Shown: positions 1,323-31,809 of the stretch, one piece after another
Layout: the number at the start of each line of letters is the position of its first letter
Position numbering within the stretch: the first letter of the stretch is position 1
DNA from: a virus
Direction: 5' to 3' (one strand)
IMG/VR virus record: IMGVR_UViG_3300037245_000757
Span: 1 to 32,074 of that record
Length of the DNA stretch: 32,074 nucleotides
Notes under the pieces: model-generated
The model's database searches: none
Seen by the model: the letters and a program-made list of their open reading frames with translations, nothing else
What the model was told of the DNA's origin: nothing
Program-made: the position numbers and the translations under genes

Positions 1323-1841
1323 ATGGACAACGAAACAAAAGAAAAAAAAGTGCCAATGCGAACGTTTATTGGCACGAAGATCATCAAAGCAAAGCCGATG
1401 ACCAACCATGAGTTTGACGGCAGTCACAGTAAGCCGGTCGACAGTGACTTGGATGCCGCGAACGGTTATCTGGTTCAGTACGCAGACGCCGATGGTGTAT
1501 TCGGCGAAACTCCGTATGAGGCATGGAGTCCGAAGGACGTGTTCGAGAAAGCGTATTTATCAATGCGTGACAGCGACGGAAGCAAGATCACTTTGTCGAT
1601 GGTGGAGGATTTCATTGAAACAAGGGATGTTGTTACGATGGGCGACAAAACTACAGTTGTTCAAGCCACCCTTCGCAATGGTTTCGTCATCACTGAGTCA
1701 TCATCTTGCGTTGACCCTGCGAATTACGACAAGGATGTCGGCGAAAAAATCTGTATGGACCGAATCCAGAACAAGGTATGGGAGTTGCTTGGTTTCATGC
1801 TCCAAACCGCTATTAGCGGAGTACAAGTCCACACTATGTAA
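1323..1841 (+). CDS. phage Gp49 family protein (N4 gp49 / Sf6 gene 66 type), 172 aa
   Basis: Two modules are visible. Residues 17-78 carry the pattern GTKIIKAKPMT, then NGYLVQY and AWSPKDVFEKAY, a short domain common in phage genomes. Residues 91-161 match the Phage_gp49_66 pattern: TTVVQATLRNGFVITESSSC, then NYD, GEKIC and a final VWELLGFML. The start follows AAAGGGAAC with good spacing. The family's role is unknown although it is widespread in podoviruses and siphoviruses. It is the last gene before a strong terminator. Confidence 0.85.
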   Translation: MDNETKEKKVPMRTFIGTKIIKAKPMTNHEFDGSHSKPVDSDLDAANGYLVQYADADGVFGETPYEAWSPKDVFEKAYLSMRDSDGSKITLSMVEDFIETRDVVTMGDKTTVVQATLRNGFVITESSSCVDPANYDKDVGEKICMDRIQNKVWELLGFMLQTAISGVQVHTM

Positions 1842-2595: not shown

Positions 2596-4109
2596 TGCCA
2601 GATATACAACTAAAAGTCAAACGCACAGACAGACAGCGGATTGCATGGACAGCCCTTGCGATGACTGTGATTGACCGTTTGCTGTATGGCGGGGCGAAGG
2701 GCGGCGGTAAGACTTTCTTTATGGTTGTATGGTTGTTTACTCAGTGCTGGGCTATGGCAGCAGCCGGTAAACTTGAGAAATCAGACACACCTCCTCACGT
2801 TGGCTGGTTTGGCAGAAAGAACGCTGTTGACTTCACCGGAACCACGCTTGAAACATGGAAGCAGGTTATCCCCGCTGATTACTACGAGATCAAGGGTGCG
2901 AGTGATAAGCATCCAAGACATATCCTGATAGACGGTAGGATCGCATTAGATTATGGCGGGCTTGATAAGAGTGAGAGCATCCAGAAGTTTAACTCTGCTG
3001 AATACGTTCTTATCGGCATCGACCAGGCGGAGGAAGTTACAAAGAGCGATGTTGCTGTATTGCGTGCATCGTTACGAATGGTGTTCAAGGACAGTCAGGG
3101 CAATGTCGTATTACCGCGTGACAATGACGGCAATGTCCTGATGAACCCGCGTGACCTTGACGGTAACAAACTCCCCGAAGAAGATCGAGTGCCTTACAAG
3201 AACTGGCCGTTCAAAGAACTATACACAGCCAACCCACGTCAGTGTTGGTTGAAAAATGACTTCATACTTGCACCGAAGGATAATGCGAAATTCGTATCTG
3301 CGTTACCGACCGACAATCCTCACCTTCCAGACAGCTACATAAAAACTCTTAAAGATGCTTTCGAGCATCGACCTGAACTATTGGCGGCTTACCTTGAAGG
3401 TGATTGGTCTTCGATCGAAGGAGCGGACCAGGTCATCAAGGGTCGATGGATCGAAGAAGCGATGGCCCGGCAAGCAACACAAGAAATACATAAACGCTTT
3501 CTTGTTTGTGATACTGCGACATTTGGTGACGATGAGTGTGTAATACTCCTCATGGATAACGCTGAGATCGAAGATGAAGTAATCATGCCTTACTGTGACC
3601 ATGACCAGATATCGAATCGGCTGGCTGGTTTAAGTGCTATGAACGGTGACTTGCCGATCGTTGTTGAAGCGGTTGGTGCTGACACAGGCGAAGCGGTTAT
3701 TACAGACCTCAAGAAGATGGGTAAAACAGTTATAAGATACACCCCGCAAGGTCAATCAAATTATCCTGAAAAGTATTACAACCAAAGAGCGGAAGCTTGG
3801 AGCGAAGCGGCGAAGATACTGAATGAGGGCGTTTTTGATAACATAACAAATATACCGGTCGTATGCCATAATATGAACATGAAAACCAGAGGCCAACTAT
3901 GTACCCCAACTTATGAATTTCGTAATTGTAAGATCATCATCGAGGCTAAGAAAAGCATTAAAAAGAGGCTGGGATGTAGCCCTGATAGAGGTGACACGTA
4001 TATAATCGGCTTATGGGCATGGAAGAAGTTGCCGATAACAACGAAGAATGACCAGGCTTTCACTAAAAAGAAGAAAAGAAGAACCCGTCAGTCAGCGATG
4101 TCGGTTTAA
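2595..4109 (+). CDS. terminase large subunit (packaging ATPase and nuclease)
   Basis: This protein drives DNA into the procapsid and cuts the concatemer. The Walker A motif GGAKGGGKT is at residues 32-40, and Walker B with catalytic acidic residues (LIGIDQAEE) at 139-147. A coupling-type TANPRQCW is near 211-218, and the hallmark YLEGDW is at 266-271. The C-terminal RNase H-like nuclease has likely metal ligands Asp306 (VCDTA), Glu358 (VVEAVG) and Asp464/Asp467 (SPDRGDTY). At 504 aa it is full length. A very basic tail (KKKKRRTR) ends the protein. It lacks its own clear ribosome binding site and starts within the stop of the 28-aa ORF. Confidence 0.95.
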   Translation: MPDIQLKVKRTDRQRIAWTALAMTVIDRLLYGGAKGGGKTFFMVVWLFTQCWAMAAAGKLEKSDTPPHVGWFGRKNAVDFTGTTLETWKQVIPADYYEIKGASDKHPRHILIDGRIALDYGGLDKSESIQKFNSAEYVLIGIDQAEEVTKSDVAVLRASLRMVFKDSQGNVVLPRDNDGNVLMNPRDLDGNKLPEEDRVPYKNWPFKELYTANPRQCWLKNDFILAPKDNAKFVSALPTDNPHLPDSYIKTLKDAFEHRPELLAAYLEGDWSSIEGADQVIKGRWIEEAMARQATQEIHKRFLVCDTATFGDDECVILLMDNAEIEDEVIMPYCDHDQISNRLAGLSAMNGDLPIVVEAVGADTGEAVITDLKKMGKTVIRYTPQGQSNYPEKYYNQRAEAWSEAAKILNEGVFDNITNIPVVCHNMNMKTRGQLCTPTYEFRNCKIIIEAKKSIKKRLGCSPDRGDTYIIGLWAWKKLPITTKNDQAFTKKKKRRTRQSAMSV

Positions 4110-6618: not shown

Positions 6619-7077
6619 ATGAAGCTTGAAATGTGGAAAGAAAAGTATTGTCATAAAAACAGCAAGGCGTGGGCGATAAATGTATGGGCTAGGGGATTGT
6701 TTATACAACTTGGGCTGACTAGGTTGACGATTCCATTCTTCTGGAAGAAACAATCGACGGCAGTTTTGTTCATGTTGGTAATAGCTGTGTGCGTTGCGGG
6801 ATGCGAACCAGAAACAAAGTACATAATCCCAAACGTGTACGAGTGGCAACCAGCCACAAAGCTTATCCTGCTTGACAATGGTGTCGACCATGAGGATATA
6901 CACGATTGCCTTGTGTGGGCTTTCGGCGAGAATTACGACAGGTTGCCACTTAATGAACTCGATGACAAGTGGCGAGAACTGCATAGCGATTCGTTTGAAA
7001 TAGCAGGTTACGATTGCATTATCGAATCGACAAAGAAAATAGGCGTTGCGTATTTAGCAAAAGGAGAACAAGAATGA
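6619..7077 (+). CDS. predicted lipoprotein, 152 aa, with long N-terminal extension
   Basis: A hydrophobic stretch ends in the lipobox VAGC with cysteine near residue 62, followed by EPE. The segment before it (about 45 residues, including several aromatic and basic residues) is much longer than a standard signal peptide. An internal start could therefore give a shorter form, although GGAG at 6606-6609 fits the ATG at 6619. The mature domain (about 90 residues) contains DCLVWAF and acidic patches with no known family. The next gene carries a nearly identical lipobox region (AVCxAGCEP), suggesting the two are diverged paralogues. Confidence 0.6.
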   Translation: MKLEMWKEKYCHKNSKAWAINVWARGLFIQLGLTRLTIPFFWKKQSTAVLFMLVIAVCVAGCEPETKYIIPNVYEWQPATKLILLDNGVDHEDIHDCLVWAFGENYDRLPLNELDDKWRELHSDSFEIAGYDCIIESTKKIGVAYLAKGEQE

Positions 7078-30097: not shown

Positions 30098-31000
30098 GTG
30101 ACAGAAGAAGAAGAAAAAGCCCAAGAACTGGCGAAAGATGACGTGGCCGAAAAAAAGGTCGATGAAGCACTGGCGAAAAAGCCAGAAACCGAAAACGCAT
30201 TGGCGTTGAGCGATGCAGAGCAAGACGATATATTCGGATCGTCCACGCTGGACAAATCGACGCCGTTATACCTCAAGCATTACAAGATCGTTAAGGATTC
30301 GGCTGAGTTTGAGGTCGGTCCCGACGAACGAGTAAAGAAGCTTGTTGGTCATGTTTTATACAAACACTGTTCAAGCAAATTCTTTAAAGGTAAATTCAAT
30401 CCATCTGAGCCGTCACCTCCAGACTGTTATTCGACTAATGGCGTCAAACCTGATGGTGGTGAAGATGTTCAATGTACCGGTATATGTGTTCAGTGCGAAA
30501 AGGACAAATACGGATCCGGTGACAACGAAAAAAGCAAGGCGTGTAAGAATTACATCCAATTATTGTTTTTACCAGATGGAGCTTTTATTCCGGTAACGAT
30601 ATCGGCGTCGGCTGCATCTTTAGGCAAAAACAGTGACTTGCAAAAGTGGCTTGATGGTGTGGTAAATGAAGTATCGACGGCGTACAATAAAATCGGCAAG
30701 AAGAATAATGCAGGCGAGCCGATCGTCGATTTCTGGTGGGCTAAAGTCGAGATTACTCTCGTGAAAAAGACTTTTTCCAATGGTGAAGCCAGTGCTGTTG
30801 TCATTAAAACACTTGGTATTCTCCTGCCTGATAGCGATGAGAATATGGTGAAAATTCGATCAATACATTCAAAAAAGAAAACTTTCACCGAAGTTTACAA
30901 CAAAGAGCTTCGTACCTTTATCGAAGGCGAAGCCGACGAAGCACCCGCCGAGACAGAACCAGAAGGCGGCTATGACGATGAAGAAGAAATCCCTGTATAG
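30098..31000 (+). CDS. candidate phage ssDNA-binding-type protein, 300 aa, GTG start
   Basis: An acidic helical N-terminus (residues 1-50) precedes a folded core. The core has CTGICVQCEKDKYGSGDNEKS-type zinc cysteines (patterned near 128-145) followed by KACKNYIQLLFLPDGAFIPVTIS (split near 148-170). It then has helical VVNEVSTAYNK and beta FWWAKVEITLVKK. The C-terminus is a strongly acidic tail (EADEAPAETEPEGG, DDEEEIPV), as in many single-strand DNA-binding proteins. The 'GKACKN...LF/L' core recurs in phage proteins near recombination genes. GTG start with AAGGTG upstream. Confidence 0.5.
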   Translation: MTEEEEKAQELAKDDVAEKKVDEALAKKPETENALALSDAEQDDIFGSSTLDKSTPLYLKHYKIVKDSAEFEVGPDERVKKLVGHVLYKHCSSKFFKGKFNPSEPSPPDCYSTNGVKPDGGEDVQCTGICVQCEKDKYGSGDNEKSKACKNYIQLLFLPDGAFIPVTISASAASLGKNSDLQKWLDGVVNEVSTAYNKIGKKNNAGEPIVDFWWAKVEITLVKKTFSNGEASAVVIKTLGILLPDSDENMVKIRSIHSKKKTFTEVYNKELRTFIEGEADEAPAETEPEGGYDDEEEIPV

Positions 31001-31008
31001 CAGGGATT
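30988..31008 (+). other. 8-bp hairpin spanning a stop codon
   Basis: AATCCCTG (30988-30995) pairs perfectly with CAGGGATT (31001-31008); the loop is TATAG, which contains the TAG stop of the preceding gene. No T-run follows. Its second arm overlaps GGATTA (31004-31009), which can instead pair with TAATCC at 31047-31052, so two folds compete. Confidence 0.5.
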
Positions 31009-31091
31009 ATGCGACTGGTGTCGGGCTGGCCCTTATCTTTGCTGGGTAATCCGAAACGGCTCGGCACCATGCTCTTATAAAATTGAATATA

Positions 31092-31233
31092 TGGGACAGT
31101 GGCACGGATGAACGAACAGGGTGCCGTTCATGGCAACTTAACATTGACGTAAGCAAATACGTCGGTGGCACTTTGCCGCAGCCCTTGCAAGGCTGAAAAG
31201 TATTGTCCGCGGCTTGGAACCCGCACTGTCCCA
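31092..31233 (+). ncRNA. ~140-nt RNA domain closed by a perfect 10-bp helix
   Basis: TGGGACAGTG (31092-31101) pairs with CACTGTCCCA (31224-31233). Inside are hairpins ATGAACG/CGTTCAT (31108/31125), GACGT/ACGTC (31146/31159) and CAGCC/GGCTG (31179/31191). It ends six bases before the tRNA. No known RNA family is recognised. Confidence 0.45.
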
Positions 31234-31239
31234 CCTTAC

Positions 31240-31312
31240 TGCGGCGTGGAGAAGTTGGTATCTCGCAAGGCTCATAACCTTGAGGTCGTGGGTTCGAATC
31301 CCACCGCCGCTA
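31240..31312 (+). tRNA. tRNA with CAU anticodon, initiator-like (fMet type)
   Basis: A complete cloverleaf of 73 nt. The acceptor TGCGGCG/CGCCGCT has U1:U72 unpaired, D-stem GAGA/TCTC with GG in the loop, anticodon stem CAAGG/CCTTG with loop CTCATAA, variable AGGTC, T-arm GTGGG-TTCGAAT-CCCAC and discriminator A. CCA is not encoded. The unpaired first base pair, A11:U24 and G30:C40, G31:C39 pairs are bacterial initiator features; A29:U41 replaces the usual third G:C. Elongator Met or tRNA-Ile2 normally pair 1:72 and have Y11:R24. Confidence 0.85.
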
Positions 31313-31360
31313 TTATCTGAAACCGATGGCTCTCGATGAGGCCTTTGTCGAACGGTGAAG

Positions 31361-31522
31361 ACTTTGTAATGCCCAAGCTTGATGCCAAATATATAGGTTG
31401 TCAAATGATTGCAAAGTACTGGATACGGGACTGCCGGCAGGGCGAATTATCCCCTGCTCGGCTTTATATAAAAATAACGACCAAAACAACTATGCCCGTT
31501 GCCGGTGCGGGGATCACCGGCA
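31361..31522 (+). ncRNA. three consecutive strong hairpins downstream of the tRNA
   Basis: ACTTTGTAAT (31361) pairs with ATTGCAAAGT (31408) over 10 positions with one G-U. GCAGGG (31437) pairs with CCCTGC (31452), extended by CCG/CGG past one bulge. TGCCGGTG (31500) pairs with CACCGGCA (31515). A reading frame crossing them (31336-31632) has no ribosome binding site and is judged spurious. Confidence 0.45.
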
Positions 31523-31539
31523 GTAAGAAAATTGAATAC

Positions 31540-31697
31540 AGAATATCAGCAGCGGGAATAAGTGCAGCATGGAAACTATCTGCATCCGGAAAGCCCGCCT
31601 GTGTTATGCCAGATGCGTCAGGTGGCGAATAGCGTCAGACAGTGAAGTAGTCTTTGGCCTGTACCACGCATTGCAGTTCGAATCTGCCTGATATTCT
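31540..31697 (+). ncRNA. cloverleaf-like RNA domain closed by a 10-bp helix, with T-arm-like hairpin
   Basis: AGAATATCAG (31540-31549) pairs with CTGATATTCT (31688-31697). Arm 1 is GCGGG/CCCGC (31552/31594) enclosing TGCAG/CTGCA (31563/31580). Arm 2 is ATGCGT/ACGCAT (31613/31666) continued by CAGG/CCTG (31619/31658) and AGAC/GTCT (31637/31650). Arm 3 is GCAG-TTCGAAT-CTGC (31673-31687), a tRNA-type T-loop stacked directly on the closing helix. It cannot be folded as a normal tRNA. Confidence 0.45.
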
Positions 31698-31809
31698 TAT
31701 CCTTAATGCAACCCAGCCGCAGGTGGTTGTTAAATAAGATGGCCTAAGAAACCATGCAGGCAGAAAAAACAGCGGCCAGTTTTTTAACATTTAACCCGAA
31801 AGGAACGTC
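31698..31809 (+). other. intergenic spacer with A/T-rich hairpin
   Basis: AAAAAAC (31764-31770) pairs with GTTTTTT (31779-31785) around an eight-base GC-rich loop. It could work as a weak terminator for the RNA locus, as the pairing strand is itself a T-run. No promoter was recognised. Confidence 0.35.

What the first reader, a model, noticed from the sequence alone, without database searches (positions are those of the whole stretch)
31001..31809. Possible giant structured phage RNA around an embedded tRNA (GOLLD/ROOL-like context)
This is the longest gene-poor stretch in a very compact genome, and it is full of strong, mostly nested inverted repeats. These include two separate perfect 10-bp long-range helices (31092/31224 and 31540/31688), several perfect 7- to 8-bp hairpins and an intact tRNA. 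Established knowledge: the GOLLD and ROOL classes are roughly 600-800-nt ornate RNAs, typically in phages and near or including tRNA genes. Inference: this locus is a member of one of those classes or a new one.
Basis: partly seen in the sequence, partly recalled or inferred. Interest (0 to 1): 0.8.

Follow-up and report, generated by a model that had tools for sequence, protein, structure and literature searches.

The report
Oversized tRNA-like RNAs flanking phage tRNA
The longest gene-free stretch of this phage fragment is a small tRNA island: an intact start-type tRNA flanked by two RNAs about twice tRNA size that appear to have tRNA-like ends; it is not one of the known giant phage RNAs.

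Summary
31001-31809 is by far the longest gap between genes (809 nt; next 197). It holds an intact tRNA-Met(CAT), 31240-31312, with initiator features, and both perfect 10-bp helices exist as stated. GOLLD and ROOL gave no match even at E<=10, and the whole stretch folds only slightly better than shuffled sequence (z -1.57; downstream 497 nt z -0.43). One ~800-nt ornate RNA is therefore not supported. What stands out is two separate units, A (31092-31233) and B (31540-31697). Each is closed by a perfect 10-bp helix. Each has a T-arm-shaped hairpin directly against its 3' strand (B: canonical TTCGAAT loop), and each follows the same 11-mer AAAATTGAATA, found nowhere else in the window. No other of the 28 comparable helices in the window has such a hairpin; shuffles give 0.13 per 32 kb. 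I read A and B as oversized tRNA-like RNAs, resembling T4 species-1 RNA (rnaC). Similar 116-154-nt tRNA-like RNAs, missed by ARAGORN, occur in other phage tRNA loci. No homologue of A or B was found, so covariation could not be tested. B also overlaps a 98-aa ORF that may be real. Function is inferred only.

The parts
31012..31073 (+). hairpin with a long stem (GGTGTCGGGCTG / CGGCTCGGCACC) upstream of unit A
   Evidence: fold z -3.5 for 31010-31079; role unknown
31079..31089 (+). AAAATTGAATA, 2 nt before unit A (promoter or processing signal inferred)
   Evidence: exact 11-mer repeat; only two exact copies in the window, none else within 1 mismatch
31092..31233 (+). unit A, 142-nt tRNA-like RNA: closing helix 31092-31100/31225-31233 (10 bp if 31224 is used), expanded region 31102-31178, anticodon-arm-shaped hairpin 31179-31195 (loop CTTGCAA), T-arm-shaped hairpin 31209-31224
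   Evidence: fold z -3.2; tRNA-like fold only 2.3 kcal/mol above the free minimum; helix plus abutting T-arm-shaped hairpin; with ~61 nt removed ARAGORN reads tRNA-Ala(TGC), 117 variants vs 0 of 60 shuffled interiors reaching that count
31240..31312 (+). intact tRNA-Met(CAT), initiator-like (A11-U24, U1 x U72 mismatch, two of three G-C pairs in the anticodon stem), no encoded CCA
   Evidence: closest database matches are tRNA-Met genes of unrelated phages
31336..31632 (+). possible 98-aa gene (alternative start ATG 31372), overlaps unit B by 93 nt
   Evidence: codon usage coding-like, periodicity weak; no homologue; pLDDT 43
31528..31538 (+). second copy of AAAATTGAATA, 1 nt before unit B
31540..31697 (+). 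unit B, 158-nt tRNA-like RNA: 10-bp closing helix 31540-31549/31688-31697, long hairpin 31552-31598, long arm 31613-31671, T-arm GCAG-TTCGAAT-CTGC 31673-31687 directly against the 3' strand
   Evidence: only hit of a T-arm-plus-remote-acceptor scan of the window, ~0.02 hits per shuffled 32-kb strand; but overall fold z only -1.5

Best explanation
The gap is a small phage tRNA island: an initiator-like tRNA flanked by two oversized tRNA-like RNAs (A, 142 nt; B, 158 nt). Each has an acceptor-like 9-10-bp closing helix and a T-arm-shaped hairpin stacked on its 3' strand, with extended hairpins where the D- and anticodon arms would be. Most likely the stretch is transcribed as a precursor, and RNase P and 3' tRNA-processing enzymes cut at the acceptor/T-arm coaxial stack to release stable tRNA-sized and double-sized RNAs, as for T4 species-1 RNA. 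Shown: the helices, the T-arm shapes, the shared 11-mer leader, the tRNA. Inferred: transcription, processing and any function; the likeliest function is a stable tRNA mimic or decoy, alternatively an interrupted or decaying tRNA.
For: Whole-window scan on both strands: 28 perfect helices of >=9 bp spanning 110-200 nt; only A and B carry an abutting 4-5-bp/7-8-nt hairpin; 200 shuffles average 0.13 hits per strand. B has the canonical T-loop TTCGAAT. The same 11-mer lies 1-2 nt before both units, a coincidence seen in 0 of 1000 shuffles. T4 rnaC has the same plan at 139 nt in the T4 tRNA cluster: terminal stem, two long arms, T-arm GGGTTCGAATCCC against the 3' strand. Oversized tRNA-like RNAs missed by ARAGORN recur in other phage tRNA loci, e.g. 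a ~137-nt family on six IMG/VR contigs with a ~60-nt insert in the D-arm and 6 pairs with compensatory changes; Rfam's own tRNA model accepts two in L118 (115 and 122 nt).
Against: No homologue of A or B, hence no covariation. Rfam's tRNA model does not report A or B even at E<=10, and the model of the 137-nt family gives B 5.8 bits and does not align A. B's overall fold is unremarkable (z -1.5) and it overlaps a possible gene. A's T-loop (CTTGGAAC) is not canonical. The scans were designed after A and B had been seen, so the chance figures are optimistic.
Confidence: 0.55

Rival explanations
1. One large ornate RNA of a new class spans the gap with the tRNA embedded as in the GOLLD linker; A and B are domains of it.
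For: Size and layout resemble GOLLD, which can lie near or contain tRNAs (PMC12286853). Phages such as Xanthomonas phage Elanor have an 875-nt gene-free gap with a tRNA-fMet-like gene ~210 nt from its start, and a conserved ~200-nt structured RNA upstream of the tRNA with 12 compensated pairs in 11 phages.
Against: No match to RF02032 or RF03087; whole-gap fold z -1.57 and downstream half z -0.43; the strong helices close two separate units; no long-range helix embraces the tRNA beyond chance-length repeats.
Confidence: 0.17
2. A and B are interrupted or decaying tRNA genes: former tRNAs with ~60-80-nt inserts in the D-arm region, spliced or non-functional.
For: A with ~61 nt removed is read as tRNA-Ala(TGC). 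Prevotella Lak phages carry tRNAs with introns (PMC6784885), and the ~137-nt RNAs of other phages are read as tRNA(TGA) after removal of ~62 nt.
Against: B gives no tRNA after removal of any segment tried. A lacks the alanine identity pair G3-U70 (it has G3-C70) and a canonical T-loop. Perfect 10-bp closing helices are not expected of decaying genes.
Confidence: 0.18
3. Ordinary tRNA gene plus a small protein gene (31336-31632); the helices are chance.
For: Coding-like codon usage of the ORF; 10% of windows elsewhere in the genome also fold at z<-2.
Against: Helix plus T-arm combination and shared leader at both units are far above shuffles; ORF periodicity weak and length unremarkable (P 0.19).
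Confidence: 0.1

Closest known systems
Bacteriophage T4 species-1 RNA (rnaC, AF158101 70908-71046)
   Same: ~140 nt, in a phage tRNA cluster, terminal stem with T-arm directly against its 3' strand, two extended arms
   Different: no sequence similarity seen; T4's terminal stem has mismatches while A and B have perfect 10-bp helices; T4 rnaC is annotated as a small stable RNA, A and B are predictions
Interrupted tRNAs of phages (Lak megaphage tRNA introns, PMC6784885; ~137-nt RNAs of L117/L119/L123/L130/L137/L139)
   Same: tRNA ends with ~60-nt extra sequence; near tRNA-Met genes
   Different: the Lak introns were described from tRNAscan; the 137-nt family has a canonical T-arm and anticodon arm; unit B does not reduce to a tRNA, and no sequence homology to A or B was detected
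GOLLD (RF02032) and ROOL (RF03087)
   Same: phage location, gene-free stretch of ~800 nt, tRNA inside or near
   Different: no model match; no evidence of one long structured RNA
Gap RNA of Bosavirus/Pamexvirus phages (Elanor and relatives)
   Same: long gene-free gap with tRNA-fMet-like gene at about the same offset
   Different: different sequence and structure; conserved domain upstream of the tRNA has covariation

Membership tests
GOLLD (RF02032) | match to the covariance model of the conserved region (gathering 150 bits) | tested here: not met
   no match at E<=10; no positive control run
ROOL (RF03087) | match to the covariance model (gathering 99.1 bits) | tested here: not met
GOLLD/ROOL-like ornate large RNA | conserved elaborate secondary structure over ~600-800 nt supported by covariation | tested here: inconclusive
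   no homologues of the region found; fold energy near shuffled
tRNA (RF00005), 31240-31312 | model score and cloverleaf | tested here: met
   66.1 bits vs 29; ARAGORN cloverleaf
tRNA (RF00005), units A and B | model score | tested here: not met
   no tRNA match at E<=10
T4 rnaC-like tRNA-like RNA | long RNA closed by a terminal stem with a T-arm directly against its 3' strand, in a tRNA locus | tested here: met
   B: canonical; A: 8-nt T-loop variant
T4 rnaC-like tRNA-like RNA | expressed, processed, stable RNA | not testable with these tools
   no transcript data
~137-nt phage tRNA-like family (model R1) | match to model R1 | tested here: not met
   B 5.8 bits, E 0.32 in 841 nt; A not aligned as a unit

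The most novel reading that the evidence does not exclude
Phage tRNA islands, including this one, carry a widespread and largely unannotated set of oversized tRNA-like RNAs (acceptor/T-arm ends with expanded D- or anticodon-arm regions) that act as tRNA mimics, for example against host tRNA-cutting defences or for initiation, and that ordinary tRNA finders miss.
Probability: 0.25. Interest if true: 0.65.

Novelty: new variant of a known kind. Interest (0 to 1): 0.42.

Why it matters
T4's species-1 RNA has, to my knowledge, no assigned function. If RNAs with the same plan recur beside tRNA genes in unrelated phages, comparative work and simple deletion tests become possible, and tRNA annotation of phages is systematically incomplete. 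If A and B are only decaying tRNAs, the finding is ordinary.

Tried and rejected
GOLLD/ROOL by cmscan and direct model search. tmRNA or intron-bearing tRNA by ARAGORN: none at normal stringency; hits at 70-80% thresholds were discarded as noise. Relatives of the region by DNA and through neighbouring proteins gave nothing useful. Terminase and portal searches found no further contig. MCP searches found genus-level relatives, but all are contigs of 4.9-8.2 kb that do not reach the region; no relative in GTDB genomes. Direct homology of A to B: internal similarity not significant (P 0.05-0.38), so the global significance including the leader rests on the 11-mer. AAAATTGAATA as a genome-wide promoter: no other exact copy and no excess of near matches. 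Homology of A/B to the 137-nt family by covariance model: no. That family by pattern in GTDB genomes: none. AlphaFold of the ORF: uninformative.

Full report
What is there. The window is a complete IMG/VR record of 32,074 bp, classed linear, so probably a fragment. Terminase, portal and an N4-gp56-type major capsid protein place it as a distant relative (25-27% in the capsid protein) of the ~61-kb podoviruses LASTA, PEp14 and Itty13. Genes are packed on the + strand; the only gap above 200 nt is 31001-31809. The gap contains a tRNA-Met(CAT) at 31240-31312. From its sequence it is initiator-like: A11-U24 and an unpaired 1-72 position (U x U), although it has only two of the three anticodon-stem G-C pairs (cloverleaf). 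Very similar tRNAs occur in unrelated phages; in a Stenotrophomonas relative of Elanor the same gene type is annotated tRNA-fMet.

Is the structure more than chance? Both 10-bp inverted repeats are exact. Two such repeats with spans of 160 nt or less never appeared in 500 shuffles, whereas 7-bp hairpins spanning 60 nt or less are at chance level. The whole stretch folds at z -1.57 and the part after the tRNA at z -0.43. Significant pieces are 31010-31079, 31092-31233 and 31421-31530, but similar values are not rare in coding parts of the same genome. So the case for one ornate 800-nt RNA is weak, and GOLLD and ROOL models do not match.

Two tRNA-like units. In both 10-bp units a hairpin of T-arm size lies directly against the 3' strand of the closing helix, as the T-arm does in tRNA. 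In B it is GCAG-TTCGAAT-CTGC at 31673-31687, followed at once by CTGATATTCT. In A it is GCGG-CTTGGAAC-CCGC at 31209-31224, which uses one base of the 10-bp helix. A scan of both strands of the window found 28 perfect helices of 9 bp or more spanning 110-200 nt; only A and B have such a hairpin, against 0.13 per shuffled strand. A stricter scan requiring the TTCRANN loop finds only B. Both units are preceded, 1-2 nt away, by AAAATTGAATA, which has no other exact copy in the window; this coincidence did not occur in 1000 shuffles. I designed these scans after seeing the units, so the figures should be read as supportive, not as formal P values. Unit A also has a 5-bp hairpin with the 7-nt loop CTTGCAA, which looks like an anticodon arm (TGC); when ~61 nt are removed, ARAGORN calls tRNA-Ala(TGC), and none of 60 interior shuffles reached that number of calls. 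Unit B does not reduce to a tRNA, and Rfam's tRNA model scores neither. Hence 'tRNA-like ends' is shown for B and likely for A; 'is a tRNA' is not.

Comparison with other phages. T4's species-1 RNA (rnaC, 139 nt, in the tRNA cluster) has the same plan: terminal stem, two extended arms, and the T-arm GGGTTCGAATCCC against the 3' strand. Among 30 IMG/VR loci fetched because they carry the same tRNA-Met type, the scan found several 116-154-nt tRNA-like RNAs (shuffled loci: 1 hit in total). A ~137-nt family occurs on six contigs (L117, L119, L123, L130, L137, L139). It has acceptor, anticodon and T-arms plus a ~60-nt structured insert in the D-arm; 6 of 35 pairs show compensatory changes in five sequences. 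These lie within about 40-300 nt of the tRNA-Met, upstream in some and downstream in others. Two more (L118, 115 and 122 nt) pass Rfam's tRNA threshold. Prevotella Lak phages are reported to carry tRNAs with introns (PMC6784885). These are analogues of A and B; model R1 of the 137-nt family does not recover A and gives B 5.8 bits, so no homology is claimed.

The conflict. Unit B overlaps the end of ORF 31336-31632. Its codon usage resembles the phage's genes (0.7% of false-frame segments do as well), but its 3-base periodicity is below the 10th percentile of coding segments, its length is unremarkable (P 0.19), it has no homologue and AlphaFold gives no confident fold. I cannot decide between a spurious ORF, an overlap, or a chance helix in B.

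Mechanism. Most likely the stretch is transcribed with its neighbours; RNase P recognises the acceptor/T-arm stack of A, the tRNA and B and cuts their 5' ends, tRNA 3' enzymes trim the other side, and the closed 9-10-bp helices protect the products. A 6-nt spacer between A and the tRNA fits co-processing. What the products do is not known; a tRNA mimic or decoy is my preferred guess, and an interrupted or decaying tRNA the main alternative. None of this was tested, and no relative that covers the region could be found (the genus-level relatives are 4.9-8.2-kb contigs).

Verdict. Real feature; not shown to be GOLLD or ROOL; most likely a tRNA island with two oversized tRNA-like RNAs; new variant of a known kind, moderate interest.

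Noticed in passing
L148:2793-2993 (Xanthomonas phage Elanor) and L154-L163: A ~175-203-nt RNA conserved between terL (a tail-fibre gene in A1432) and the tRNA in 11 Bosavirus/Pamexvirus-type phages, no Rfam match in Elanor; RNAalifold gives 35 pairs, 12 with compensatory changes, including GATGAGA/TCTCATC and a hairpin just before the tRNA. Possibly an undescribed RNA family.
   Followed up: partly
L123:222-358, L117:8267-8403, L119:4321-4456(-), L130:538-675(-), L137:234-371(-), L139:5695-5831(-): ~137-nt tRNA-like RNA family with a ~60-nt structured insert in the D-arm, missed by ARAGORN, near tRNA-Met genes of IMG/VR phages.
   Followed up: partly
L118:2832-2946, 3009-3130, 6686-6789: tRNAs of 104-122 nt accepted by the Rfam tRNA model with inserts, in a locus with 25 ARAGORN tRNAs.
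   Followed up: no
L149:3091-3619 (Gordonia phage GodonK): Rfam tmRNA match of 90 bits inside the phage's tRNA cluster, not annotated in the record; it overlaps an annotated tRNA-His.
   Followed up: no
L153:6741-7823 (Streptomyces phage LuckySocke): An RNA ligase gene beside the phage's tRNA genes, of interest for tRNA repair or splicing.
   Followed up: no
window 1323-1841: Codon usage favours this frame (0.33/codon) over the overlapping ORF 1408-1902 (-0.17/codon); the former is probably the gene.
   Followed up: partly
window 30988-31008: Perfect 8-bp hairpin over the stop codon of the 30098-31000 gene; followed by a T-rich run on the minus strand, so it could end minus-strand transcription.
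   Followed up: no
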